Positions 776 to 13,765 of a DNA stretch of 64,000 nt are shown here, one piece after another. Under the pieces are notes generated by a model. The model searched no databases and had not been told where the DNA came from. It saw only the letters and a program-made list of their open reading frames with translations. The DNA comes from Micromonospora pattaloongensis. Its GTDB lineage: Bacteria; Actinomycetota; Actinomycetes; Mycobacteriales; Micromonosporaceae. The stretch covers positions 1 to 64,000 of the forward strand of contig NZ_FNPH01000008.1 in the NCBI RefSeq assembly GCF_900107255.1. Direction: 5' to 3'. Both the position numbers and the translations under genes were made by a program. Every line of letters starts with the position of its first letter. Position 1 is the stretch's first letter.

Positions 776-3700
776 GTTGCGTTCCTCGCCCGGCGCGATG
801 GCCCGGGCGCAGCGTGGTGCCGCCCTCGCCGCCGTTCATCGCACTCTTGGCGTTGCGATCCTCGCCCGGCGCGATGGCCGGGCGCAGGCCAGGACGTCCC
901 CGTCACGGACGAGGCGATCAAGCGGCTGTTGCGATCCTCGCCCGGCGCGATGGCCGGGCGCAGGCGGTAGCGAACCATGGCGAAGGACCACGGGCCAATG
1001 CGGTTGCGATCCTCGCCCGGCGCGATGGCCGGGCGCAGGCCGCGTCGGATCCGGACCCGTCGGCGGCCTCCCACAGCGGGGTTGCGATCCTCGCCCGGCG
1101 CGATGGCCGGGCGCAGGCCGACACACCGTCCACCACCGAGCTGGCCAGCCCAGTGTTGCGATCCTCGCCCGGCGCGATGGCCGGGCGCAGGCCGCAGGCG
1201 CTGCTGGTCGCTCACCTCGCTGCACGGTTGCGATCCTCGCCCGGCGCGATGGCCGGGCGCAGGATCGTCAAGGTGTCACCGGCGGCGTCGCCCAACCGGT
1301 CGTTGCGATCCTCGCCCGGCGCGATGGCCGGGCGCAGGCTCGTGCTCGTCGGCGTCACTGTCGATCACCAACTCGTTGCGATCCTCGCCCGGCGCGATGG
1401 CCGGGCGCAGGCTTCCACCTGTTCATCGACAAGGCGATGACGTGGGAGTTGCGATCCTCGCTCGGCGCGATGGCCGGGCGCAGGGCCGGATCCAGCGGTG
1501 GCGGTCCGGGCACCCCGGAGTTGCGATCCTCGCCCGGCGCGATGGCCGGGCGCAGGCAGCTGCGGGGCCGCCCGTACAAGGCGTTCGTGGTCGAGTTGCG
1601 ATCCTCGCCCGGCGCGATGGCCGGGCGCAGGGGTGGCGGCGTTCATGCCGAGCAGGGTGGGACCGACCTCGTTGCGATCCTCGCCCGGCGCGATGGCCGG
1701 GCGCAGGCGGAGCTGCGCGGCGTCGTCTTGCACTGGCTGTGGACGTTGCGATCCTCGCCCGGCGCGATGGCCGGGCGCAGGGACATTCGGGCCGCACTCG
1801 CCACGCTGATCAAGATCGCGGTTGCGATCCTCGCCCGGCGCGATGGCCGGGCGCAGGGACCAACGCCATGAGCCACCCCGTCGCCGGCCGCGAGGTTGCG
1901 ATCCTCGCCCGGCGCGATGGCCGGGCGCAGGTGCCGCAATGATGATGAGAGCGCCGAATAGGCCGAGGCCGTTGCGATCCTCGCCCGGCGCGATGGCCGG
2001 GCGCAGGAGCTCGGTTTCGGGAAAGACCATGCCCTGGCCCCTCTCAGTTGCGATCCTCGCCCGGCGCGATGGCCGGGCGCAGGCTCGACGACCGTGACGA
2101 GGTAGGGCGGGGTCTTCTCCTGGTTGCGATCCTCGCCCGGCGCGATGGCCGGGCGCAGGCCCGACCCCGTCTTCCCGAGCCACCCGGGCTCCGGGGTGTT
2201 GCGATCCTCGCCCGGCGCGATGGCCGGGCGCAGGAGACGGCCAACGAGGTGTACGGCGGGGGTGCAGCGTGTTGCGATCCTCGCCCGGCGCGATGGCCGG
2301 GCGCAGGGTTGGGGTCGGAATTCAGGTCGTCGAGTATCCCGTCGTTGCGATCCTCGCCCGGCGCGATGGCCGGGCGCAGGTGGTGGGGGTGACAGACCAC
2401 CAGACTTCCGGTTCGTAGTTGCGATCCTCGCCCGGCGCGATGGCCGGGCGCAGGCACCGGGCTACCGGGGTTAGTGTCTCATCTAGAAACAGGTTGCGAT
2501 CCTCGCCCGGCGCGATGGCCGGGCGCAGGGACCCAGCCGGCGGGCAGGCCCATCAGCCACTCGACGTTGCGATCCTCGCCCGGCGCGATGGCCGGGCGCA
2601 GGACACCAGCGTCCCCTTCGGCTGGCCGTCGACCAGGGGGAGTTGCGATCCTCGCCCGGCGCGATGGCCGGGCGCAGGCGTACGGCGAACCGCTGGTCAC
2701 GGTGCTGAATCCGCGGTTGCGATCCTCGCCCGGCGCGATGGCCGGGCGCAGGTGGCCCGAGCACCAGCGCATCAACCGACCCACCCCCTCGTTGCGATCC
2801 TCGCCCGGCGCGATGGCCGGGCGCAGGGCGGACGGCCGGGTCTGGTCCCAGTGCTCCGCGTAGTCGTTGCGATCCTCGCCCGGCGCGATGGCCGGGCGCA
2901 GGCCGGCGGCACGGTCGGGTCGATGCGCGACGACACCGGGTTGCGATCCTCGCCCGGCGCGATGGCCGGGCGCAGGGCGCCGTCGATCACCGCGACCGGG
3001 ATGCCGTTCTCGCGGTTGCGATCCTCGCCCGGCGCGATGGCCGGGCGCAGGTTGAGACCGCCGCGAACCTCCTTCCACCCAAGACTCTTGTTGCGATCCT
3101 CGCCCGGCGCGATGGCCGGGCGCAGGGCACGGGACCGGGCGCGGTTGCCGAGCCGCGGGATGTTGCGATCCTCGCCCGGCGCGATGGCCGGGCGCAGGTG
3201 GCGGAACGGGCGGGCGCAGGGGGTCACGCCGCGGCAGTTGCGATCCTCGCCCGGCGCGATGGCCGGGCGCAGGGTCGCGGAGTGGTGGGCCGACACGCAG
3301 GACCCGCACGAGTTGCGATCCTCGCCCGGCGCGATGGCCGGGCGCAGGGTCGTGGCGCCGCCCGTACCGCGACGCGATGGAGGCGTGGTTGCGATCCTCG
3401 CCCGGCGCGATGGCCGGGCGCAGGCCCATTACGAGGTGGTGCCATCCTGACACCCAAACGTTGCGATCCTCGCCCGGCGCGATGGCCGGGCGCAGGGCCC
3501 TCAACCACTTGGGCGGACAGGTGGCCGACGCGATCGTTGCGATCCACGCCCGGCGCGATGGCCGGGCGCAGGGTCATCGGGACGGACACATCGTGCTGGC
3601 TGAGCCAGTTGCGATCCTCGCCCGGCGCGATGGCCGGGCGCAGGCGGGATCACCAGCCGCGCCGGGTTCGTGCGGTGGGTGGTTGCGATCCTCGCCCGGC

Positions 3701-5279
3701 GCGATGGCCGGGCGCAGGCGGCCAGGCGCACGCCCCGGTCACCTTGTCGGTGGTGCGGTTGCGATCCTCGCCCGGCGCGATGGCCGGGCGCAGGTCTGGC
3801 GAGCCGGTACGGACCTCGGCAGCCAAGCGCTCGTTGCGATCCTCGCCCGGCGCGATGGCCGGGCGCAGGCTGCCCGCGTGGACGCGGTGGCCTTGTCGGA
3901 GGTGGTGTTGCGATCCTCGCCCGGCGCGATGGCCGGGCGCAGGCGTAGTGCTCCCCGCCGTCGGTGTACGACCGCAGCGCGTTGCGATCCTCGCCCGGCG
4001 CGATGGCCGGGCGCAGGCATTCCGCTCCGCGCTCAACTGGATGATCAGCAAGTGGTTGCGATCCTCGCCCGGCGCGATGGCCGGGCGCAGGGACGGGGGT
4101 GGGGGGTGACCCCCAAAGCCCCAGGTCAGAGTTGCGATCCTCGCCCGGCGCGATGGCCGGGCGCAGGTGAACTCGACCATGTCGGCCATACCGCCGTCGT
4201 ACTTGTTGCGATCCTCGCCCGGCGCGATGGCCGGGCGCAGGCACGTAGCGCACCTGCAGCGCCGTCTGCGTGGCCGGGGTTGCGATCCTCGCCCGGCGCG
4301 ATGGCCGGGCGCAGGCGACCAGTCCAAGGTCGGCATCCCCGTTCCTCTCAAGTTGCGATCCTCGCCCGGCGCGATGGCCGGGCGCAGGCGCCGGGCGGGC
4401 GGCCCACCACCACGTAGGGCGCCGTGTTGCGATCCTCGCCCGGCGCGATGGCCGAGCGCAGGACCCGTCGTCTGGTAGACCTGCGCGTCGGCGAGCGACC
4501 CGTTGCGATCCTCGCCCGGCGCGATGGCCGGGCGCAGGCGCCGGGCGGGCGGCCCACCACCACGTAGGGCGCCGTGTTGCGATCCTCGCCCGGCGCGATG
4601 GCCGAGCGCAGGACCCGTCGTCTGGTAGACCTGCGCGTCGGCGAGCGACCCGTTGCGGTCCTCGCCCGGCGCGATGGCCGGGCGCAGGCGCCGGGCGGGC
4701 GGCCCACCACCACGTAGGGCGCCGTGTTGCGATCCTCGCCCGGCGCGATGGCCGGGCGCAGGACCCGTCGTCTGGTAGACCTGCGCGTCGGCGAGCGACC
4801 CGTTGCGATCCTCGCCCGGCGCGATGGCCGGGCGCAGGGTTCTGGCCGGCGACCGTCGAGCAGCGCGACGACGGGTTGCGATCCTCGCCCGGCGCGATGG
4901 CCGGGCGCAGGACTCCTCCACGGGCACGTCGGTCATGTCCCACACCTCGTTGCGATCCTCGCCCGGCGCGATGGCCGGGCGCAGGGCTCCGCCGGGTGTG
5001 GAAGGCCGCCGGCGAGGCGGAGTTGCGATCCTCGCCCGGCGCGATGGCCGGGCGCAGGCATCGAATGCACCCGTCGCGCCGGCCGGCCCGAAGGAGTTGC
5101 GATCCTCGCCCGGCGCGATGGCCGGGCGCAGGCCTGCGCCGAGAAGCTGCTGATCGCCCGGCACCGGCCGTTGCGATCCTCGCCCGGCGCGATGGCCGGG
5201 CGCAGGCGCTCGGTGATAGCCACGGGCACCTCCTCACACCCAGTTGCGATCCTCGCCCGGCGCGATGGCCGGGCGCAGG
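776..5279 (-). CRISPR. Type I-C CRISPR array, 61 repeats and 60 spacers
   Basis: A 37-bp repeat recurs 61 times with a period of 72-78 bp, giving spacers of 35-41 bp. In crRNA orientation (minus strand) it reads CCTG, an 8-bp stem CGCCCGGC/GCCGGGCG around a 6-nt loop, then AGGATCGCAAC, the expected 11-nt type I-C handle cut by Cas5. Transcription on the minus strand is inferred from that handle, from the AT-richer leader next to cas2 at the 5279 end, and from the degenerate repeat at the far end (776-813, altered at several bases). Internal repeat variants are at 1448 (CTCGG for CCCGG), 3536 (ATCCACG), 4426 and 4576 (GCCGAGCG), and 4652 (GCGGTC). About 56 spacers are unique because one spacer pair is triplicated. 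Long frames reading CARPSRRARIAT or AILARRDGRAQ are only translations of the repeat. Confidence 0.99.
4389..4801. repeat. Triplicated two-spacer unit inside the CRISPR array
   Basis: Spacers A (4389-4425) and B (4463-4501) occur in the order ABABAB, with copies of A at 4539 and 4689 and of B at 4613 and 4763. The unit is 150 bp. The repeats between them carry different point changes: GCCGAGCG at 4426 and 4576 but not at 4726, and GCGGTC only at 4652. The block therefore arose by tandem duplication followed by point mutation, not by repeated acquisition. Confidence 0.95.
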
Positions 5280-5404: not shown

Positions 5405-5695
5405 CTAGATCACTAACGCTCCGCGTGGTTCGATCAGCCGTGGTTTGCCGAGATGTTCGACGTCGTCGAGCGCGTGGGCCGGCAGCCGGTAGATCCTGAT
5501 GGTGTCCTGGGCCGGGTCGATGACCTCTTGGAGCGCGGCGACCAGGCGCACCTTGTCGGTTTCGCGGCAGACCACCTCGAACACCGACTGTTGCACGCGA
5601 TGGCCGTACGCCTCACAGGTTTTGGCGACCTTGCGCAGTCGGCGTTGCCCTCGTGGCGTGACCGTCTCGACGTCGTACGTGACGAGTAAGTCCAC
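5405..5695 (-). CDS. cas2: CRISPR-associated endonuclease Cas2
   Basis: 96 aa, the usual Cas2 length. The N-terminus MDLLVTYDVET has the beta-strand YDV motif with the conserved Asp8. Cas2 is the structural dimer that bridges Cas1 dimers during spacer integration. The GTG start overlaps the cas1 TAG by one base (TAGTG), so the two are translationally coupled. It is the last gene of the cas operon and lies directly next to the leader. The family assignment is secure; activity is inferred. Confidence 0.97.
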   Translation of the reverse strand: MDLLVTYDVETVTPRGQRRLRKVAKTCEAYGHRVQQSVFEVVCRETDKVRLVAALQEVIDPAQDTIRIYRLPAHALDDVEHLGKPRLIEPRGALVI

Positions 5696-6723
5696 TAGTT
5701 CACCGTCCAGGGTTGGTATGCGACCAGGTCTCCGCGGAGGTGACGTGCGAGCAGCCGGGCCTGTACGAGCGGCAGCAGCGCGGCGGGCACCTCCCGGCCG
5801 AGCTGCGCGTGCGGCCAGTTACGCTGCCTGCTCTGCTGCCAGGCGGCCAGCACGGTCTTACGTCCACCGTCTGTAAGCCGGTATGCCTTGTTTGGCAGTA
5901 CCTCAAAGTCGGTCGGGCTCAGCTCGCGCCGGTTGAGCATGGTGAGCGCGAGCCGGTCGGCCAGTAGTGGCCGGAACTCTTCCATCAGGTCCAGCGCGAG
6001 AGCGGGTTTGCCCGGCCGGACGGCGTGTAGGAAGCCGATGTACGGGTCGAGTCCGACCTGATCGAGCGCGCCCTGCACAGCGACCCGCAGCATGCCGTAC
6101 AGGAAGGAGAGCAGGCAGTTCAGCGGGTCGGTGGGTGGTCGTTTGTTGCGCCCGGAGGCCTTCCAGTCCTTGTTGTCGCCGAGCAGGTAGGGCATGGCGG
6201 CGAAGTAGTCGCGTGCGGCGATGCCTTCGACGCCGAGCACTTCGTTGCTGCTGGTCGCGGTGGTGAGCAGTTCAAGCCGCCCGGCCAGTATTTCGGCGCT
6301 GGCCCGTAGCGCTGTTTGCCGGTGTCCGCTGGTGTCCCTAGCGGCGCGTAGCAGCACTTGTCGCGCGTTGTGTATCTTGCCGGCGACGATGGCGATCGCG
6401 ATTGGTAGTTGCCGGTCCGGCGAGTCGGCGGCCCGGTGTTGGGCTTTGCGGAGCAGTGGGTTGCCGTGGGTGGGGCCGACCAGGCCGGCTCGGAAGCGTC
6501 CGTTACCGGTGAGCCAGCTGACCGAGCGGCCGTCGTCGGCGCACTGTAGCAGGAGGTCGTCGCTGGGTGTCACGCCGCTGAACAGGACCAGGTGGTCGAG
6601 TCGGACGAGCGGTAGCAGCCGGCGTCCGGGCTGGTCGGGGTGGTGCACGCGGACGGTGTCGCCGTCGAGGTGCAGGCTGGTTCCGGGGGTCTGCACGTAG
6701 AGGGTGTTGAGCAGCTCAGTCAC
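5695..6723 (-). CDS. cas1: CRISPR-associated integrase Cas1 (type I-C)
   Basis: 342 aa, normal for I-C Cas1. The expected metal-binding residues are visible: Glu166 in GVEGIAARDYF, His233 in GFLHAVRPGKP and Asp245 in LALDLMEEFRP. Cas1 with Cas2 integrates new spacers at the leader end of the array; in I-C systems Cas4 helps select TTC-flanked DNA. The start is a GTG that overlaps the end of cas4 in either reading frame. The long, ordered array next door shows acquisition has been active in the past. Confidence 0.97.
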   Translation of the reverse strand: MTELLNTLYVQTPGTSLHLDGDTVRVHHPDQPGRRLLPLVRLDHLVLFSGVTPSDDLLLQCADDGRSVSWLTGNGRFRAGLVGPTHGNPLLRKAQHRAADSPDRQLPIAIAIVAGKIHNARQVLLRAARDTSGHRQTALRASAEILAGRLELLTTATSSNEVLGVEGIAARDYFAAMPYLLGDNKDWKASGRNKRPPTDPLNCLLSFLYGMLRVAVQGALDQVGLDPYIGFLHAVRPGKPALALDLMEEFRPLLADRLALTMLNRRELSPTDFEVLPNKAYRLTDGGRKTVLAAWQQSRQRNWPHAQLGREVPAALLPLVQARLLARHLRGDLVAYQPWTVN

Positions 6724-7367
6724 ACCACTGTCCCAATGGTCGTGGGGTCAACAGGTCGGGTGTGGCCTGCCGCCGGCCGTCGGTCAGTTCGGGCAGGCAG
6801 TCCTCGCGCAGTGAACATCGCCGGCAGCGGGCGTCGTTGCGCGCGGCCCGGCAAAGCCGGGGTGTCGAGCAGCCGGCGTACGGCCACGGTCGCGGCCACG
6901 ACCCGGTCGAGCAGGTGGGTGTCGATGGGTATCGCGTGCCGGCGCCGTTCGGCGACCGAGTAGATGTAGCCGGTTGGCACGTCGAAGCCGGCTTCGAGAA
7001 GGCAGAGTGCCTGCCCACCGAGTTGCAGCTCGGCGGGCCCGCCGGCTTTGTAATGCCCGACCTTGTATTCGACCGGTGTGGCCGTACCCTTCTCGAATTC
7101 GACGATGTCGCAGATGCCGCGTAGGCCGTGGGTGTGGCTCCAGACCGGTAGTGACCGGATCACGGTGAGGCCCCGGCGGCGTTGGATGCCCGGCAGGTCG
7201 ACCGTGGTGTGGCTGAGGTCGCCGCGCACCGTCTCGACGCTTTCCGACCAGACGCCCTCTACGTGGATCAGCGCTGTCTGCCGGTGGCAGTAGGCGTAGT
7301 GCTCCAGCGCGGACAGCGGCACCTCCCGCAGGTCGGTGCCGCTGTCCGCCGGGTGGTCGTCGGTCAC
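6720..7367 (-). CDS. cas4: Cas4 exonuclease, apparently frameshifted near its C-terminus
   Basis: RecB-family nuclease that trims prespacers with Cas1-Cas2. The N-terminal cluster cysteine is Cys27 (YAYCHRQTA), and the nuclease residues Asp87 (GICDIVEF) and Glu100-Tyr-Lys102 are present. The annotated frame then ends in sequence unlike Cas4 (after about residue 166), without the other three Fe-S cysteines. The neighbouring frame, which runs to 6716, reads ARCRRCSLREDCLPEL, the canonical C-x2-C-x5-C end. A one-base change around the G4 run at 6859-6862 would join the two. Either the sequence has an indel error or this gene has lost its [4Fe-4S] cluster. The start at 7367 overlaps the cas7 stop by 4 nt. 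Confidence 0.85.
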   Translation of the reverse strand: MTDDHPADSGTDLREVPLSALEHYAYCHRQTALIHVEGVWSESVETVRGDLSHTTVDLPGIQRRRGLTVIRSLPVWSHTHGLRGICDIVEFEKGTATPVEYKVGHYKAGGPAELQLGGQALCLLEAGFDVPTGYIYSVAERRRHAIPIDTHLLDRVVAATVAVRRLLDTPALPGRAQRRPLPAMFTARGLPARTDRRPAAGHTRPVDPTTIGTVV

Positions 7368-8227
7368 GGCCAGAGGTCGACCAGCTTCGTCAGCTCGACA
7401 CCGTCCGGTAGCCCCGACTCGTCGATGGTGCGGTTGTAGTCGGTGTGGGCGCGCGCCGCCTTGTCTTCGTCTTTGCGCTTAAGCGTGATGCGCTGGGTGA
7501 GGGCGGCCGAGGGGGCGACCCCGAACGCGTCGGGGTGGCTGAACACGTAGAGCCCACACAGCTTCATCTCGCCGCGGGTGGCGGCCCGGTCGTGGTCGAA
7601 CATGACCGTGATGGCCTGCCAGAGCGCAGCCAGGTCATCGCTGGTCACGCCGGTCTTCGCGGCGCGGGGCGCAGAGTAGAACACGTGCGCCCGGTACAGG
7701 CCGTACGGAACGGACCACTTGGAGCCGATCTCCGTCCGCTCCCCCTTGTCGATGTCCTCCTGCCGGGTCTGGGTAACCCGAGTGATGGTGTGGTCGGTGG
7801 GCAGGATCGGATCAATGCTGCGGGCGAAGGTGAGCTGGAGCGGGCCGCGGACCTGGCCGGCACCGCCTCCCTTGCCGGTGCTGAGTACGCCGCCGAACAT
7901 TCGGATGTCGAAGTAGTGCTCGCACATCCACCGCTGCGCGTCGTCGGCCTTGCCCGGGTTGGCCTTCAACGCCGCCTCGATCCGGGTGTTCAGGGCGAAG
8001 CCTGCCTCGACGAAGATGCCGTAGCGCGGGTCGTCGCCCCGCAGCAGCGACACCGTGTCGCGGATTTTGCGCTTAATTGCCACGTCGGTGACCAGGCCCT
8101 GTCCGCTCTCGTCGTCGGTGCGCGGCTGGTTGCCGGCGTCCGGGTCGCCGTTCGGGTTTCCGTCGCTGACGTCGAACAGCAGGACGGCGTCGTGGCGGCG
8201 GGTCGCGTCGAGGTGCGCGGCGGTCAT
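7364..8227 (-). CDS. cas7: Cas7 (Csd2), type I-C Cascade backbone
   Basis: 287 aa. The N-terminal signature LLFDVSDGNPNGDPDAGNQP is typical of Csd2/Cas7 proteins. Several copies form the helical backbone that holds the crRNA spacer and displaces the DNA strand. It overlaps cas8c upstream and cas4 downstream by 4 nt each, so it belongs to a tightly coupled operon. No anomalies seen. Confidence 0.97.
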   Translation of the reverse strand: MTAAHLDATRRHDAVLLFDVSDGNPNGDPDAGNQPRTDDESGQGLVTDVAIKRKIRDTVSLLRGDDPRYGIFVEAGFALNTRIEAALKANPGKADDAQRWMCEHYFDIRMFGGVLSTGKGGGAGQVRGPLQLTFARSIDPILPTDHTITRVTQTRQEDIDKGERTEIGSKWSVPYGLYRAHVFYSAPRAAKTGVTSDDLAALWQAITVMFDHDRAATRGEMKLCGLYVFSHPDAFGVAPSAALTQRITLKRKDEDKAARAHTDYNRTIDESGLPDGVELTKLVDLWP

Positions 8228-10053
8228 GCATCGTCTCCTTCGGCGTCGGTGGTCGGCGCCACGTCGTCGGGCTCCGGGGGCAGGTCGGTCTTCTTCTTGT
8301 TGGCGGCTGCCGCGAGTCGTTCGGTCCGCATTTCGGCCCGCTGCTGGTGGTAGCCGAGGACGAACTGGGCCTTGTCAGTCAGCACCGCGCCGTTGGGAAT
8401 TGCGTCGAGCTGGACAAACAGGTCATCGAGTCGCCGTTCGTATGCCTCGGACCAGTTCGGCCGGCGCAGTGGCCCGCGCAGCCGTTTGAGCCATGCCTGC
8501 ACGTTGCGGCGGCCGGAAACGATGACGACCTGCGGGTTGTCGATGGCGCGGCCGAAGTAGCGTTCGGCGAAGGTGGTGTTCAGCTTCTGGTCGGCGACCC
8601 GGAACACGGTCCGTTGCAGGTCGTCCATGACGGCGAAGATTCGGCCGGACACGTAGGCCGGCTTCTGTTTGTGCTCCACGCTCAAGGTCGGCGTCAGCCT
8701 CTCTCGTTCATGTTCGGGCAGGTTGGGGTGGCGGCGGAGTGCGAGCCGGATCAGTGCGGCACGAGCCGCGTCGAGCCGGCCGTCGATACGGATCCGGTTG
8801 ATGACATGGTTGAGCAGTTTCGGCGGCAACGGCCGCTTGAGCAGCGCCGCACCAAGCAGCCGGTGGAACAGGTCGGGCGGTCGGTGTTCGCCGGACGCAC
8901 CGAACTTGGTCCAGGTCCCGGGGCCTCCGTTGCGCCCGGCCTCGAACCGCCCGGCCGCCCGGGCCAACTGGGAGACCTTGACCTCCACCACCTCACCGGT
9001 CCAGGCGTCAACGATCTTGTGGTCGTCGAACCAGGCCCTGATGTTGTCCTTCACCTGGCGGATCGGCTGCTCAACCCAGTCCCGTACGACCACTCGGGCG
9101 ACGTTGCCGCCCACCGTCACCGAGCAGTACCGGGACAGGTCGTCCGCCGCCGATTCCTTGCCGCTGGCGGGGCCCGCAATCAGGTTCTGGATCTGGGTCG
9201 GGTCCAGCTGCTCGACCGTCGCCCACGGATCGAAGTCCGACCCGCCCAACACCCACCAGGCGAGTCGAGCGTTCTGCCCGGACAGGGCGGTGCTGTGCAG
9301 CGGATCGGAAAGCAGACCGGTCAGCGCGGTCATGAACTTAAGGCCGCAGTCGGCGCAGATCGGGGTGTTGGTCAGGAACTTCTGCAGCTCGTAGCCGTGC
9401 ACGGCCTCGTTCATGCTGACCAGCGACGCGCTCTGGGTGGCGCCAGGCACCCACCGCCGAGGAATCTGCTGCGGCACAGTCTTGAGCAACGGCTGCACCT
9501 GCCCACAGACCAGACACAGGCCCGACCGCCCCGAACCCTTCCGGTCACCAGCCACCCCGGCCCAAAACCGCCGCGCCGAGCCGGTGTCTGCCGCATACAC
9601 CCCATCGACCCAGAGGCCGATCAGATCACCCCTGCTCCAATCGGTCGGCGGCCGGAGCTTGCCCGCATGCCCGTCCCGATAAAAGGCGGCGATGGCCGGG
9701 CCCGGGCCGTTCCGTTCGGCAGCGGCCCACTCGGTGATCAGGGCGCGGAACGCCTCGTGCTGCTTCGCGACCCGCTCCGGCTTGGCTCCCTCCGACAGCC
9801 AGCCGAAGACGTACTCGCCGTTGTCGACCGCGAGCGCGGGTGAGATCCCGACAGTCCGGGTCACCGACGGAACCAGGCGGGATACCCCGAACCTTCGTTG
9901 CGGGTCGTCCTTGTCCGCTGTGCTGACCAGGTCACCCTCGGGTACGCCGTTCCCGTCGATCTCCAGGCTCCACCGCACCGGCTTACGGGCGTAGAAGGCC
10001 GGGATGACGTCCTCGCTGGTGTCGGCGTACTCCACCAGCCGTTGCAGCAGCAC
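8224..10053 (-). CDS. cas8c: Cas8c (Csd1), type I-C large subunit
   Basis: 609 aa, the normal size for Csd1. It starts with a GTG (MLLQRLVEYADTSEDVIPAFY) and contains the Csd1-like central segment with four cysteines in the form CLVCG and CADCG, a probable zinc knuckle. Cas8c recognises the PAM (usually TTC in I-C) and recruits Cas3; in I-C an internal start often also makes a small Cas11 subunit from the 3' part of this gene. Its start overlaps the cas5 stop by one base. Confidence 0.96.
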   Translation of the reverse strand: MLLQRLVEYADTSEDVIPAFYARKPVRWSLEIDGNGVPEGDLVSTADKDDPQRRFGVSRLVPSVTRTVGISPALAVDNGEYVFGWLSEGAKPERVAKQHEAFRALITEWAAAERNGPGPAIAAFYRDGHAGKLRPPTDWSRGDLIGLWVDGVYAADTGSARRFWAGVAGDRKGSGRSGLCLVCGQVQPLLKTVPQQIPRRWVPGATQSASLVSMNEAVHGYELQKFLTNTPICADCGLKFMTALTGLLSDPLHSTALSGQNARLAWWVLGGSDFDPWATVEQLDPTQIQNLIAGPASGKESAADDLSRYCSVTVGGNVARVVVRDWVEQPIRQVKDNIRAWFDDHKIVDAWTGEVVEVKVSQLARAAGRFEAGRNGGPGTWTKFGASGEHRPPDLFHRLLGAALLKRPLPPKLLNHVINRIRIDGRLDAARAALIRLALRRHPNLPEHERERLTPTLSVEHKQKPAYVSGRIFAVMDDLQRTVFRVADQKLNTTFAERYFGRAIDNPQVVIVSGRRNVQAWLKRLRGPLRRPNWSEAYERRLDDLFVQLDAIPNGAVLTDKAQFVLGYHQQRAEMRTERLAAAANKKKTDLPPEPDDVAPTTDAEGDDA

Positions 10054-10754
10054 TACGCCACCTGGCCTTCCACCGGAAGCGCCAGCTCAATCCCACGGTC
10101 GGGCACATAGAGCACACCGGCGACAACCCGCGCGGCGAACCACTCCATCCGCGGCTGGCCAGGCTTTCCGTCCCGGTGGATGGAGTGCAGCATGATGCCG
10201 ACCTCCTCGTTGACGTCCGCCCGCGGCGTGTCATCCGGCCAGCCAAACTCGGCGCTGAACTCCCGAGTGCCGAGATACGGCTGCTGGAAACAGGCACCCT
10301 TGCGGACTCGGCGACGAAGCTGATCCCGGTACGCCGCGACCGGCTTGTCCGCGTGCGCAGCCAACTCGATGTGGGCGTGGATCCGGTACGCCACGTCACG
10401 CAGGCAGACGGCATTGCGCTGGTCGCGGTGCGCGGCCGTGTCCACCCGGCGGGTGCCCTTGATCGCCTCAGCCAGCGGCGCGACGTCGGAGGTCTCGTTA
10501 CGTCGAACCGAGAACTGCCTCACCGGCTTGAGCACCTCGATCGCGACAACCTGGTACCGCATCTCCGGCTTCCAGAAGATCGATTCGAGTACGCCCACCG
10601 CAGCCGACGGGGTCATCACCGGATAACTGACCCGCTCCACCTTCAGTTCCGGCCGTGAGAACAGCGCCGCCTCACCACTGACCTGCACCACAACCGGAAG
10701 GTCACCGTCCGGGCTGCGCCTCAGAGTCAGCCCGTTGACCACATCCGTCGTCAC
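10053..10754 (-). CDS. cas5: Cas5 (Cas5d/Cas5c), crRNA-processing endoribonuclease
   Basis: Type I-C systems lack Cas6; Cas5 cuts the repeat at the base of the stem and leaves the 11-nt handle. The protein reads VTTDVVNGLTLRR then ALFSRPELKVERVSYPVMTPSAAVGVLESIFWKP, the Cas5d core. I chose the GTG at 10754 (233 aa), not the longer frame from 10808, because GGGAGGGG sits 8 nt upstream of it and the family normally starts there. It is the first gene of the cas5-8c-7-4-1-2 operon. Its upstream region carries the crRNA-like element described separately, so its expression may be controlled by Cascade itself. Confidence 0.95.
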   Translation of the reverse strand: MTTDVVNGLTLRRSPDGDLPVVVQVSGEAALFSRPELKVERVSYPVMTPSAAVGVLESIFWKPEMRYQVVAIEVLKPVRQFSVRRNETSDVAPLAEAIKGTRRVDTAAHRDQRNAVCLRDVAYRIHAHIELAAHADKPVAAYRDQLRRRVRKGACFQQPYLGTREFSAEFGWPDDTPRADVNEEVGIMLHSIHRDGKPGQPRMEWFAARVVAGVLYVPDRGIELALPVEGQVA

Positions 10755-10921
10755 AGCACAAACCCCTCCCAAGATCAGAGCTGATCGAACACACGATCGA
10801 TAAGGCACCCAACCATGAAATCGGCGGACCTCTCACACAACAGGTGCGAGGATCCACGACCGGTACGACAAAACCGGCTGATTGATCAACCAGGTGAGGC
10901 TCGCCATCGGTCGGTGACCGT

Positions 10922-11044
10922 CCGGCATGGACTGTACGACCCTCAGTCCATGCCGGCAGCGACGAAGGTGCTCGATCACCACCTGAGGTTGCGATCCTCA
11001 GCACCAGAAGGCGCTGCAGGCGCCCCAGTTTCCGAGCCGGCGCC
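10922..11044 (-). ncRNA. Candidate crRNA-like regulatory RNA (solitary mini-CRISPR repeat)
   Basis: On the minus strand 11020-10988 reads CCTG, stem CAGCGCC, loop TTCT, stem GGTGCTG, then AGGATCGCAAC. The CCTG and the 11-nt handle are identical to the array repeat. The stem bases differ but still pair (six Watson-Crick and one G-U), which indicates selection for structure. A spacer-like segment begins at 10987 (CTCAGGTGGTG) and is followed after 31 nt by a perfect 13-bp hairpin, 10956-10922, which could define the RNA 3' end. A minus-strand -10 TACACT at 11055-11050 would start transcription near 11043. This layout matches CreR/CreA-type RNAs known from other type I systems. Expression is an inference. 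Confidence 0.72.
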
Positions 11045-11049
11045 GACGC

Positions 11050-11107
11050 AGTGTATCCCACTTCCTCAGGTGGTGGTCTTGCCGGACCGTCCATAATCGA
11101 GTTAACT
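11050..11107. promoter_or_regulatory. Divergent promoter region with a TTC-flanked target of the crRNA-like RNA
   Basis: Plus strand 11065-11075 is CTCAGGTGGTG, identical to positions 1-11 of the crRNA-like spacer, and is preceded directly by TTC (11062-11064), the usual type I-C PAM. Position 12, the first mismatch, falls at a base normally flipped out in Cascade; 13, 14, 17 and 18 match again. The site lies between a minus-strand -10 (TACACT, 11055-11050) and its weak -35, facing cas5. On the plus strand it abuts a possible -35 TTGCCG (11079-11084) with TTAACT 17 nt later (11102-11107), facing the 67-aa gene. Binding could repress either promoter or both. Confidence 0.65.
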
Positions 11108-11230
11108 GACGCGGTCGGGCGAATGCCTGGCTCCGAGCCGGGCGGAAACCGTCCCTCAAAAACGACGGTCCGCTGCGCCAACAGCGGACCGCCCAGCTCC
11201 CCCGCCGTCCGATAGGCCGAAGGGAACCAC

Positions 11231-11434
11231 ATGACAGTAGATCAACGCCGCGACCGCAGGCCACTCAACCGGGACCACGAGCCGAAGAGCCCGGCTCCCT
11301 TGCCTGTCCGCTGGGCAGTCATCATCGGGCTCAGCGGGGCAGTCGGCATCATGGTCGGCACAGCCGACAGTGTTTCCGCAGGCGTGCTCGCCAGTTTGAT
11401 CACGGCAGGTTCGCTAAACGCGATCATGAAGTGA
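11231..11434 (+). CDS. Small membrane protein of unknown function in the cas3-cas5 gap
   Basis: 67 aa, read opposite to the cas genes. The ATG has an AAGGGA ribosome site 5-6 nt upstream. The first 25 residues are polar and basic (MTVDQRRDRRPLNRD...), followed by a hydrophobic, glycine-rich stretch from WAVIIGLSGAVGIMVG to about residue 65 that could form one or two membrane helices. The leader between the proposed promoter and the start (11108-11230) folds into hairpins: GGCTCCGAGCC at 11129-11139, ACCGTC/GACGGT at 11148-11169, and a perfect 10-bp stem at 11166-11191 that excludes the previous one. I recognise no named family. Its position makes it a candidate CreT-like toxin, but it may be a harmless membrane peptide. 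Confidence 0.6.
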   Translation: MTVDQRRDRRPLNRDHEPKSPAPLPVRWAVIIGLSGAVGIMVGTADSVSAGVLASLITAGSLNAIMK

Positions 11435-11497: not shown

Positions 11498-13765
11498 TCA
11501 GAGAACAAACTGCTCCGGCTTCGGGTCAAGACTGATGCCGATGGCATCGTCGTACTCGCCGACCCACTCGACCAGCACGCCCCGCCGCACCTCGTTACCG
11601 AGGATCGGCCGCATCAGCGCCATCACACCGGGTTGGCGTAGGGCGCTGGGGTGAAGGTTTGTCGTGTACGCCTGCAACCGCCGCAGCTTCGCCAGGTCAG
11701 GAACCGGCGCCAGGCGCAGTTCCTCGATCAGTTGCTCCAGTTCGCGCCGCAACTCAGGTGTCTCGGCCCCCTGCGGCGTCACCACGCCAATCCCGTCATC
11801 GTCGATGATTCGGAATGCCAGCCTCCGGTCCCGCCGTTTGGTGCTCGCGTCCATCGGCCCCTCGGCCACGGTCTCGAACTGCCACCGTCCTCGGGCGTGC
11901 TGGATGCGTTTCCCGACGTGCTGGCCGTCGGCGAGATTCAACACGTCGTACACGTTGCGGTAGTAGCGTCCGAGCGCCTCCGTATCGTCCGGGTCGGCCT
12001 TATCCGGTCCGAACTGGCGCCCGGTGCAGCCGACCAATGTCTTGTACGTGGGCGGCTGCCCGCCGTCCTCTGGAGCGAACACGACCACTCGTCCCCCGTC
12101 CGGCATCCGTCCCTCGCGGTTGGCTCGCCCGGCCGCCTGAAGCAGCGAATCGGCCGGCGCCATCGCACGGAACACCACCGGGAAATCGACGTCCACCCCA
12201 GCCTCGATCAGCTGGGTGGCCACGAGCAGGACACGCTCGCTCCGGTTAAGGCGTGCCCGCACCTTCTCCAGCACCCGCCGCCGATGGTGCGGGCACATCC
12301 GGGTGGACAGGTGCCAGGCAACGCCATCCGGCTCGGTGTCACGCCACTGGTCAAACACCGCCTTCGCGTCCGCGGTCGTGTTGACCACGACCAGCGCCGC
12401 TGCCTCCGACGCGGCCTGGTCGGCGATGTCGGCCAGCGTCGGTTTCGGGTCGAGCTGCCACTCGTACCGCACTCTTCGCAGATCACTGACCAGTTTCGGA
12501 GTGTCGTGGATCAGGTCGGTGCACGGCACGCCCTTGAACTCATCCAGTGCCCAGAAGCTCGGCTGGGTCGCCGAGGAGAGCAGCACGGTCGCGCCGAAGT
12601 GCCGCACGAGCAGCCGGAGCCCGTCGAGGATCGGCGCGAGCATCGCGTGTGGCAGCGCCTGCACCTCGTCCAGCACGATCACCGAATGTGCCAGCCGGTG
12701 CACCCGGCGCATCGCCGACGGCTTGCGGGCGTACAACGATTCGAAGAGCCGAACAAACGTGGTGACGACGAACGGACCGTCCCAGTTCTCGGCCGCAAGT
12801 CGCGCCCACCGGCCGGCTTTCGGGTCGTCAAAGTCGGCCTGGCTGTGATGTTCGAGGACGACCGGCTCAACATCGTCCTCATCGAGCAGCCGACGGTAGA
12901 CGGCGGCATTCTGCTCGGTGACGGTGAGGAACGGAACCGCCACGATCACCCGGCGTAGACCATGCTTCTCCGCGTGCCGCAGCGCGAACCCGCCGCTCGC
13001 AAGGGTCTTACCGGCTCCGGTTGGCGCACCGAGGCGGAACACCCCACGATCCCGCTCGGCCGCCGCGAGGCAGTCCGTGTAGACCCGCTCCCGCAGACTG
13101 CCGATCGGCGTGCCGCCGCGCCCTGCGAGTTCGTCATGCCGCCGCTGCTCGAACAGCTTGTAGAGGTGGCCAAAGTCGGCGTCTGGACGTACCCGTGGGC
13201 TGGCGAGTCCCTGGAAGTGCGCGCTGGTGTCCAGGCTGTCCGCGTCGACCAGAGCGCTGTAGCACAGACGGAGTGCCATCTCCCCCACCAGCGGATCTGC
13301 CCGCCAGTCCGCCGGCACCAGATGGTCGAGCCGTTCCGGCAGGTCCGGCAACAGGCCGGGCAGCTCCCGCTCGGCGGACGCCACGTTGTCGGGCGCGTCA
13401 GACAGCCTGCGTCGGAACGCCTCACGGAGGTTAGGCGAGTCGATCAGTCCGCCATGATGGCCGAAGACCGCACCGGCGAACGCGCCGAGGCCACGTTCGA
13501 ATGCGATCCGGGTGCCGAGCGACTTGTGGTCGATACCGACTGGACGGCCGGTGGGCGCGACAGCAGCAAGCTTGTCCTGCCAGGCGCAGGCCGCCTTACC
13601 CACGTCATGCAGCGCACCAAGCCAGTACGCCACGTCACCCCCGCCAAATGGAACGGCAAATCGTCGCGCCAGCTCCGCCGTACTACGAAGATGATCGACA
13701 AGAGAATGCCACCGGCTGCTGCCAGGAGCAGGGCTATGCGCCCAGAGAGAACTCACACCAGACAC
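11498..13765 (-). CDS. cas3: Cas3 helicase-nuclease (type I-C)
   Basis: 755 aa with both expected parts. The N-terminal HD nuclease shows His20 and the His53-Asp54 pair (GALHDVGKA). The SF2 helicase shows Walker A in APTGAGKT, the DEVQ box in VLDEVQALP, motif III SSATQ, and the motif V/VI region IEAGVDVDFPVVFRA and QAAGRANR. Cas3 is recruited by Cascade to unwind and degrade target DNA. A GTG start with AGGGA 7 nt upstream fits the family start. It is separated from cas5 by about 740 bp, unlike many I-C loci where cas3 leads the operon directly, so it probably has its own promoter in 13766-13911. Confidence 0.96.
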   Translation of the reverse strand: MSGVSSLWAHSPAPGSSRWHSLVDHLRSTAELARRFAVPFGGGDVAYWLGALHDVGKAACAWQDKLAAVAPTGRPVGIDHKSLGTRIAFERGLGAFAGAVFGHHGGLIDSPNLREAFRRRLSDAPDNVASAERELPGLLPDLPERLDHLVPADWRADPLVGEMALRLCYSALVDADSLDTSAHFQGLASPRVRPDADFGHLYKLFEQRRHDELAGRGGTPIGSLRERVYTDCLAAAERDRGVFRLGAPTGAGKTLASGGFALRHAEKHGLRRVIVAVPFLTVTEQNAAVYRRLLDEDDVEPVVLEHHSQADFDDPKAGRWARLAAENWDGPFVVTTFVRLFESLYARKPSAMRRVHRLAHSVIVLDEVQALPHAMLAPILDGLRLLVRHFGATVLLSSATQPSFWALDEFKGVPCTDLIHDTPKLVSDLRRVRYEWQLDPKPTLADIADQAASEAAALVVVNTTADAKAVFDQWRDTEPDGVAWHLSTRMCPHHRRRVLEKVRARLNRSERVLLVATQLIEAGVDVDFPVVFRAMAPADSLLQAAGRANREGRMPDGGRVVVFAPEDGGQPPTYKTLVGCTGRQFGPDKADPDDTEALGRYYRNVYDVLNLADGQHVGKRIQHARGRWQFETVAEGPMDASTKRRDRRLAFRIIDDDGIGVVTPQGAETPELRRELEQLIEELRLAPVPDLAKLRRLQAYTTNLHPSALRQPGVMALMRPILGNEVRRGVLVEWVGEYDDAIGISLDPKPEQFVL

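What the first reader, a model, noticed from the sequence alone, without database searches (positions are those of the whole stretch)
10922..11107. A solitary, covarying CRISPR repeat between cas3 and cas5 forms a crRNA-like RNA aimed at its own promoter region
Seen directly: (1) at 10988-11020 (minus) there is a single repeat-like unit with the same CCTG start and the identical AGGATCGCAAC handle as the array, while the stem bases are different yet still paired (CAGCGCC/GGTGCTG). (2) The next 11 nt, CTCAGGTGGTG, equal plus-strand 11065-11075. (3) That site is directly preceded by TTC, the usual type I-C PAM, and starts exactly at spacer position 1. (4) The first mismatch is position 12, a flipped-out base in Cascade; 13, 14, 17 and 18 match again. 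(5) The spacer-like part ends in a perfect 13-bp hairpin. Known: CreR and CreA RNAs in other type I systems use partial seed matches to let Cascade repress, without cutting, cas or toxin promoters. Inference: this is such a regulator in an actinobacterial I-C system, where I know of no description.
Basis: partly seen in the sequence, partly recalled or inferred. Interest (0 to 1): 0.95.

Follow-up and report, generated by a model that had tools for sequence, protein, structure and literature searches.

The report
Stray CRISPR repeat targets neighbouring promoter
Between two of its CRISPR genes this actinobacterium carries one stray CRISPR repeat that likely makes a guide RNA which would steer the cell's own CRISPR complex to a short matching site next door and turn down, rather than cut, the promoters predicted there; the same guide-and-site pairing, almost always with different letters, is found in 34 of 99 related loci examined.

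Summary
One degenerate type I-C repeat (10988-11020, minus) carries the array's 11-nt handle; the next 11 nt recur behind a TTC PAM (11062-11075); a 13-bp hairpin follows. In 32 of 99 distinct actinobacterial I-C loci a solitary handle (at most 2 mismatches) is followed by a guide matching a nearby TTC-flanked site in at least 9 of 10 of positions 1-5 and 7-11; with 3 mismatches 34 loci, 33 distinct seeds. Controls with shifted register or other PAMs give 0-2. Unselected positions 6 and 12 are free and 13-17 partly matched, as in a Cascade R-loop, so a protein-binding dyad is excluded. The element precedes the leading cas gene, be it cas5 or cas3. It is most likely a CreR/CreA-type guide letting I-C Cascade repress a promoter without cutting. 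In the window's lineage the target also lies before a divergent gene for a 67-aa, probably membrane, protein, the layout of Acinetobacter I-F creTA; but three relatives lost that gene and kept the pairing. Cas autorepression is therefore the likelier core role. RNA and repression are untested. The kind is known; an actinobacterial I-C case was not found in the papers I could search.

The parts
10988..11020 (-). solitary degenerate type I-C repeat (psiR); 5' handle AGGATCGCAAC = 10998-10988
10977..10987 (-). seed of the guide, CTCAGGTGGTG
10957..10976 (-). rest of the spacer-like part up to the hairpin
10922..10956 (-). 3' hairpin, 13-bp perfect stem, 9-nt loop; predicted 3' end of the guide RNA
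   Evidence: 2 of 120 random windows of the locus as stable
11062..11064 (+). TTC PAM
11065..11099 (+). partial protospacer; positions 1-11 match, then 13, 14, 17, 18 (length of R-loop inferred)
11050..11055 (-). TACACT, predicted -10 box of the guide/cas-side promoter, 6 nt beyond the PAM
   Evidence: no sigma-70 consensus promoter was found here
11231..11434 (+). divergent 67-aa ORF, predicted two-helix membrane protein
11164..11193 (-). terminator-like hairpin with T tail, predicted end of the cas3 transcript
10874..10893 (-). terminator-like hairpin with T tail between guide and cas5
11498..13765 (-). cas3
   Evidence: cas3_core, cas3_HD above cut-off
10053..10808 (-). cas5c, predicted processing enzyme of the guide
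5405..10053 (-). cas8c, cas7, cas4, cas1c, cas2
776..5279 (-). CRISPR array, about 60 repeats

Best explanation
A solitary type I-C repeat most likely makes a crRNA-like guide that would steer the strain's own Cascade to an 11-bp, TTC-flanked site beside it and is predicted to repress, without cutting, the promoter region inferred to lie there. Shown from sequence: handle, register, PAM, seed pairing with positions 6 and 12 free, recurrence with changed letters, and a place ahead of the leading cas gene. Inferred: transcription from a TAnnnT promoter just beyond the PAM, processing by Cas5c at the base of the repeat stem, use of the 3' hairpin as 3' end, and a match too short for Cas3 to act, so that bound Cascade only blocks RNA polymerase. 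The result would be a negative feedback loop (CreR-type autorepression) on the guide and the cas5-cas2 effector operon. In the window's lineage the same complex would also cover the promoter region of the divergent 67-aa gene, a lineage-specific addition with the layout of a CreTA module.
For: 32 of 99 loci (95 handle-like sites with at most 2 mismatches) have a TTC target matching at least 9/10 of positions 1-5 and 7-11, 24 of them 10/10; 31 shifted registers give mean 0.06, max 1; 63 other PAMs mean 0.21, max 2; targets from another locus 0.25 per round. With 3 handle mismatches 34 loci. Mismatches at unselected positions in 34 loci: 28 at 6, 26 at 12, 10-17 at 13-17, 26 at 18 and about chance after that. 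A scan blind to the handle recovers it: 22 TTC pairs with 9-11 of 11 handle identity, six control PAMs none at 8 or more. 33 of 34 seeds differ. The element stands before cas5 where there is a gap and before cas3 where there is none; handle 177-251 nt from the leading gene's match in 21 of 34. 14 of 20 upstream opposite-strand targets have TAnnnT 0-13 nt beyond the PAM on the cas strand, shuffles 3.1, max 9. In 7 loci the target is within 80 bp of the end of the cas3 match, leaving no room for a divergent gene; in 7 loci it lies between guide and cas5, in L124 and L125 at or just before the cas5 match. L041, L042 and L043 lack a working 67-aa ORF but keep guide and target, L042 at 8/10.
Against: No RNA or expression data. 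65 of 99 loci show no pair at this threshold; 14 handle sites with at most 1 mismatch in loci without a hit, of which 6 loci reach 8/10 and the rest nothing. In the window two hairpins, one T-tailed (10893-10874), stand between guide and cas5, which would cut off read-through, and the target is about 257 nt from cas5. No sigma-70 consensus promoter in 10780-11300. The joint fold does not form the repeat stem. L040 keeps cas genes and array but has no guide. The 3' hairpin is not exceptional in 15 of 34 loci. The 1-5/7-11 score was chosen after a first look and from the CreA literature.
Confidence: 0.72

Rival explanations
1. CreTA-like module: the guide is the antitoxin, and its main client is the divergent 67-aa membrane protein (or its RNA), which is set free when Cascade fails.
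For: Divergent ORF family beside the target both in the cas3-cas5 gap (window, L039, L044-L048) and upstream of cas3 (L049, L050, L054); dN/dS 0.22-0.74 in 10 pairs; the 12 strongest of 46 matching genomes among 354 all have it at the I-C locus; same layout as Acinetobacter I-F creTA (PMC10097628 passages); two hairpins between guide and cas5; other small hydrophobic ORFs beside the element in some lineages; L040 lost ORF and guide together.
Against: L041 (stop at codon 4), L042 and L043 (ORF absent) keep guide and target; 7 loci have no room for a divergent gene; in L124 and L125 the target is at cas5; toxicity unknown; other small hydrophobic ORFs were not tested for conservation beyond a few pairs and GC-rich DNA yields many.
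Confidence: 0.22
2. The two 11-nt copies are a binding site (dyad) for a protein repressor, and the repeat is accidental.
For: In the window they are inverted copies, and CAGGTG-like words recur in the gap.
Against: 8 of 34 loci have direct copies; TTC and exact register needed; free positions 6 and 12; handle recovered blind.
Confidence: 0.02
3. A decayed array remnant or a phage-type solitary repeat (Racr) without regulatory target.
For: Single, degenerate repeat; a I-C Racr is known (PMC10651486 passages).
Against: A remnant would not keep a PAM-flanked seed match in 34 loci; the element is in the cas locus beside its target; no similar DNA in 50,697 phage records (nucleotide search only).
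Confidence: 0.04

Closest known systems
CreR, cas-regulating RNA (Liu 2023 Cell Host Microbe; not held, known from passages in PMC13131331 and PMC12737573, and recalled)
   Same: crRNA-like RNA from an ectopic repeat in the cas locus, partial complementarity to a promoter region, no cutting
   Different: Reported there for I-B, I-E and V-A; here type I-C, Actinobacteria, one repeat plus a long hairpin, and in one lineage a divergent small protein gene
CreTA of Acinetobacter I-F (PMC10097628, passages)
   Same: Sits in a gap after cas3, divergent mini-ORF, PAM-flanked target between ORF and guide gene; other strains lack the gap
   Different: Two repeats flank its guide and its toxin is an RNA; here one repeat, a 67-aa ORF under purifying selection, toxicity unknown
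CreA of Haloarcula hispanica / Halobacterium hubeiense I-B (PMC8501985, passages)
   Same: TTC PAM, pairing at 1-5 and 7-11; the one-repeat form ends in a terminator
   Different: Archaeal, RNA toxin, T-rich terminator; only 1 of 34 hairpins here is followed by four T
crRNA-like RNAs from standalone repeats (Shmakov 2023, NAR gkad495; not held, abstract recalled)
   Same: Standalone repeats with spacers partly complementary to cas or cargo promoters, mostly type I
   Different: I could not check whether actinobacterial I-C loci are among its predictions
CrePA (PMC12737573, passages)
   Same: Protein client repressed by a crRNA-like RNA
   Different: CreP typically has a KilA-N domain; the 67-aa protein has no Pfam match

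Membership tests
CreR | ectopic degenerate repeat inside the cas locus with functional-looking handle | tested here: met
CreR | partial seed match to a PAM-flanked site nearby | tested here: met
CreR | target in the promoter of the cas operon | tested here: inconclusive
   TAnnnT in 14 of 20, place before the leading gene; but hairpins between guide and cas5 in the window
CreR | RNA made and cas genes repressed | not testable with these tools
   needs RNA and deletion data
CreTA | divergent or adjacent toxin gene with the target in its promoter region | tested here: inconclusive
   Layout met in the window's lineage; not met in L041-L043 and in 7 loci without room
CreTA | toxicity released when Cascade is lost | not testable with these tools
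   needs expression and deletion tests
CrePA | CreP toxin, typically with KilA-N domain | tested here: not met
   No Pfam match for the ORF
Racr | solitary repeat in a mobile element, away from cas genes | tested here: not met
   In the cas operon, no phage record similar
Type I-C CRISPR-Cas | Cas5c, Cas8c, Cas7 (Csd2), Cas1c models above cut-off, plus cas3, cas4, cas2 and array | tested here: met
   (Cas4 by 0.1 bit)

The most novel reading that the evidence does not exclude
Actinobacterial type I-C systems carry guide-plus-small-membrane-protein modules: Cascade, led by a one-repeat RNA with a 3' hairpin, silences a divergent membrane-active protein, so that anti-CRISPRs or loss of cas genes would release a killer or alarm protein, while the same bound complex sets cas expression. 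The module stands either in the cas3-cas5 gap or before cas3, and some lineages bear unrelated small hydrophobic ORFs in its place.
Probability: 0.24. Interest if true: 0.88.

Novelty: new variant of a known kind. Interest (0 to 1): 0.73.

Why it matters
RNA-guided self-regulation by CRISPR effectors is reported for I-B, I-E and V-A (CreR) and I-B, I-F (CreTA) in the passages I saw. This adds type I-C and 34 actinobacterial loci with 33 different seeds: a natural mutation series showing which guide positions matter in living cells (1-5 and 7-11 kept, 6 and 12 free, 13-17 partly kept). A 2025 review of actinomycete CRISPR asks whether these systems have regulatory roles at all (PMC12231136, passages); here is a concrete, testable site. 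Users of native I-C systems for editing or silencing in actinomycetes would also meet this predicted feedback.

Tried and rejected
Protein-binding dyad: rejected (8 direct-repeat loci, register, PAM, free positions). Array remnant or Racr: rejected as main reading. CrePA: no CreP domain. A second repeat after the guide: none; the best handle-like site downstream has 3-6 mismatches in the 34 loci. Rfam: one sub-threshold hit, DUF3800-VI at 11135-11199 (23.5 bits, gathering 35), taken as chance. Sigma-70 consensus promoters in 10780-11300: none. Neighbours of distant homologues of the 67-aa family: four loci fetched, nine neighbouring ORFs scanned; mixed (Mrr-type endonuclease, erythromycin-esterase-like, sigma factor, hydrolase and others), no lead. 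Hairpin stability: rank at most 2.5% of 120 random windows in 19 of 34 loci; ordinary in L047, L060, L103, L109, L112. T-tailed hairpins between guide and leading cas gene: 9 of 33 loci, 3.85 expected from shuffles. My first systematic scan (28 loci) sent loci with overlapping cas3/cas5 matches to the wrong region; one search is the corrected one. With 3 handle mismatches the controls rise (451 sites; shift mean 1.3, max 13; other PAM mean 1.1, max 13), so 32 is the cleaner count, 34 the wider. I had first taken L042's guide as decayed; one search shows TTC, 8/10 and further matches at 13-18, so it counts as kept, and I lowered the small-protein reading slightly for it. Position 18 is not a separate peak: from 18 on mismatches are near chance. 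Literature for an I-C or actinobacterial case; none found in the listings; Liu 2023 and Shmakov 2023 are not in the library.

Full report
What is there. The window holds a type I-C locus on the minus strand: cas3 (13765-11498), cas5c (10808-10053), cas8c, cas7, cas4, cas1, cas2 and an array of about 60 repeats. Between cas3 and cas5, at 11020-10988 minus, stands one degenerate repeat with the array's handle; its next 11 nt match plus 11065-11075 behind TTC; a 13-bp hairpin follows. The 12-mer GTTGCGATCCTC occurs 59 times, 58 in the array and once here. TTC plus seed (position 6 free) occurs once in the genome; its reversed control pattern occurs twice, so rarity alone is no proof. Folded with its flanks the repeat stem is not in the minimum-energy structure; alone it forms.

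Relatives. Cas5c matches were found in 30 of 354 genomes of the family and 15 of 397 of the order, 5 genomes being in both lists. A scan of named species genomes kept the best 80 of 551 relatives. Of 120 loci, the window included, 21 were duplicates and 99 remained. Searched were the cas3-cas5 gap if 100 bp or more, 700 bp upstream of cas3, or 700 bp upstream of cas5 where cas3 is elsewhere.

Systematic test. Of 95 solitary handle-like sites with at most 2 mismatches, 32, each in another locus, are followed by a guide with a TTC-flanked target matching at least 9 of the 10 positions 1-5 and 7-11; 24 match all ten. Same score, guide start shifted (31 shifts): mean 0.06, max 1. Each of 63 other trinucleotides as PAM: mean 0.21, max 2. 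Targets from another locus: 0.25 per round (earlier version of the scan). With 3 handle mismatches: 34 loci, weaker controls (shift mean 1.3, max 13). Six more loci have 8 of 10 with TTC (L042, L044, L045, L046, L084, L165); eight other sites with at most 1 handle mismatch in loci without a hit have nothing. A scan that ignores the handle finds it by itself: 22 TTC-flanked 10/10 pairs have 9-11 of 11 handle identity, six control PAMs none at 8 or above.

Pattern of mismatches in the 34 loci: positions 1-4 none, 5 one, 6 twenty-eight, 7-11 one or two each, 12 twenty-six, 13-17 ten to seventeen, 18 twenty-six and near chance thereafter. Positions 1-5 and 7-11 were selected for; the others were not. 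That every sixth guide base is unpaired in type I Cascade is recalled. In H. hubeiense CreA each of 1-5 and 7-11 was needed behind TTC, and H. hispanica has the same pattern (PMC8501985, passages). 33 of 34 seeds differ, so guide and target have changed together many times. In L039 (M. thermarum) the old TTC reads TTT and a site in the other orientation stands nearby, over the same -10-like TACACT (read).

Place. Where cas3 and cas5 are split the element is in the gap; where they are contiguous it is upstream of cas3 (10 of 34 loci). The handle is 177-251 nt from the leading gene's match in 21 of 34 (match starts, so some distances are over-estimated). Targets: 20 on the opposite strand upstream of the guide, 6 on the opposite strand downstream, 8 on the same strand. 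Of the 20, 14 have TAnnnT 0-13 nt beyond the PAM on the cas strand, against 3.1 (max 9) in 1000 shuffles. In seven loci the target is between guide and cas5 (L104, L123, L124, L125, L138, L156, L159), in L124 and L125 at or just before the cas5 match. Hosts with named records include Micromonospora, Salinispora, Plantactinospora, Actinoplanes, Glycomyces, Lentzea, Saccharothrix, Frankia, Nocardia, Nonomuraea, Microbispora and Streptomyces.

The divergent gene. A 67-aa ORF (11231-11434, plus) points away from the target. Relatives stand at the same place in L039 and L044-L048, and beside the element upstream of cas3 in L049, L050 and L054. dN/dS in ten pairs is 0.22-0.74. In 354 family genomes 46 have a match; the 12 strongest (60 bits or more) are all at the I-C locus; of the other 34 genomes 33 have no Cas5c match. 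No Pfam or PADLOC match (one chance-level Pfam line at E 0.13). The model has two helices, 26-45 and 48-66, at modest confidence (pLDDT 67); that it is a membrane protein is inferred from hydropathy. The layout cas3 / divergent mini-ORF / target / guide is that of Acinetobacter I-F creTA, also in a gap after cas3 that other strains lack (PMC10097628, passages). Coupling is not strict: L041 has a stop at codon 4, L042 and L043 lack the ORF, and all three keep guide and target (L042 at 8/10); L040 has lost both. In seven loci (L061, L067, L103, L109, L112, L116, L128) the target is within 80 bp of the end of the cas3 match, so no divergent gene fits. In two Streptomyces loci (L156, L159) the target overlaps the start of a 41-45-aa hydrophobic ORF.

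Mechanism. The RNA is likely started just beyond the PAM, cut by Cas5c at the base of the repeat stem, and carries a long hairpin in place of a second repeat. The hairpin is in the lowest 2.5% of random windows in 19 of 34 loci; only one is followed by four T in a row. Cascade with this guide would bind the partial target and hold off RNA polymerase; that Cas3 stays silent on so short a match is taken from CreA/CreR, not tested. A terminator-like hairpin (11193-11164) would end the cas3 transcript, so the cas5 operon needs a promoter in this gap; a second one (10893-10874; also in L043) stands between guide and cas5 and weakens direct control of cas5 (3 terminator-like sites, 0.5 expected).

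What it is. It works like a CreR/CreA guide. For CreR the sequence features are met and the regulated promoter is open; for CreTA the layout is met in one lineage and toxicity is open; CrePA and Racr are not met. Papers seen as passages found by terms: PMC13131331, PMC12737573, PMC8501985, PMC9458426, PMC10097628, PMC10651486, PMC12231136, PMC10013973. PMC11417383 gave no passage. Liu 2023 and Shmakov 2023 were not held and are recalled or known from citing passages. The term 'I-C' is absent from PMC12737573, PMC8501985, PMC9458426 and PMC10097628. Nine searches listed no actinobacterial I-C case.

Noticed in passing
window 4352-4854: Three near-identical 150-nt stretches (100%, 100%, 96%) in the array: two repeat-spacer units duplicated in tandem.
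   Followed up: no
window 10832-10850 and the same place in relatives: Inverted repeat CTCGCAC/GTGTGAG (minus strand) in the conserved stretch just upstream of cas5, kept with changes in relatives and in L040, which lacks the guide; a possible cas5 promoter or operator.
   Followed up: partly
L039 8933: Target in flipped orientation while the old site has lost its TTC: a case of target turnover.
   Followed up: partly
L156 9748-9874, L159 9694-9832: Two Streptomyces loci have a 41-45-aa hydrophobic ORF whose start overlaps the guide's target.
   Followed up: no
L199 5048-5212: A distant homologue of the 67-aa protein lies near an Mrr-type restriction endonuclease ORF.
   Followed up: partly
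window 11135-11199 minus: Sub-threshold Rfam match to DUF3800-VI RNA (23.5 bits, gathering 35) over the cas3 terminator-like hairpin.
   Followed up: no
L053 (handle at 6902 in the oriented locus): Solitary repeat with exact handle upstream of cas3 and a 67-aa-family match nearby, but no TTC target found.
   Followed up: partly
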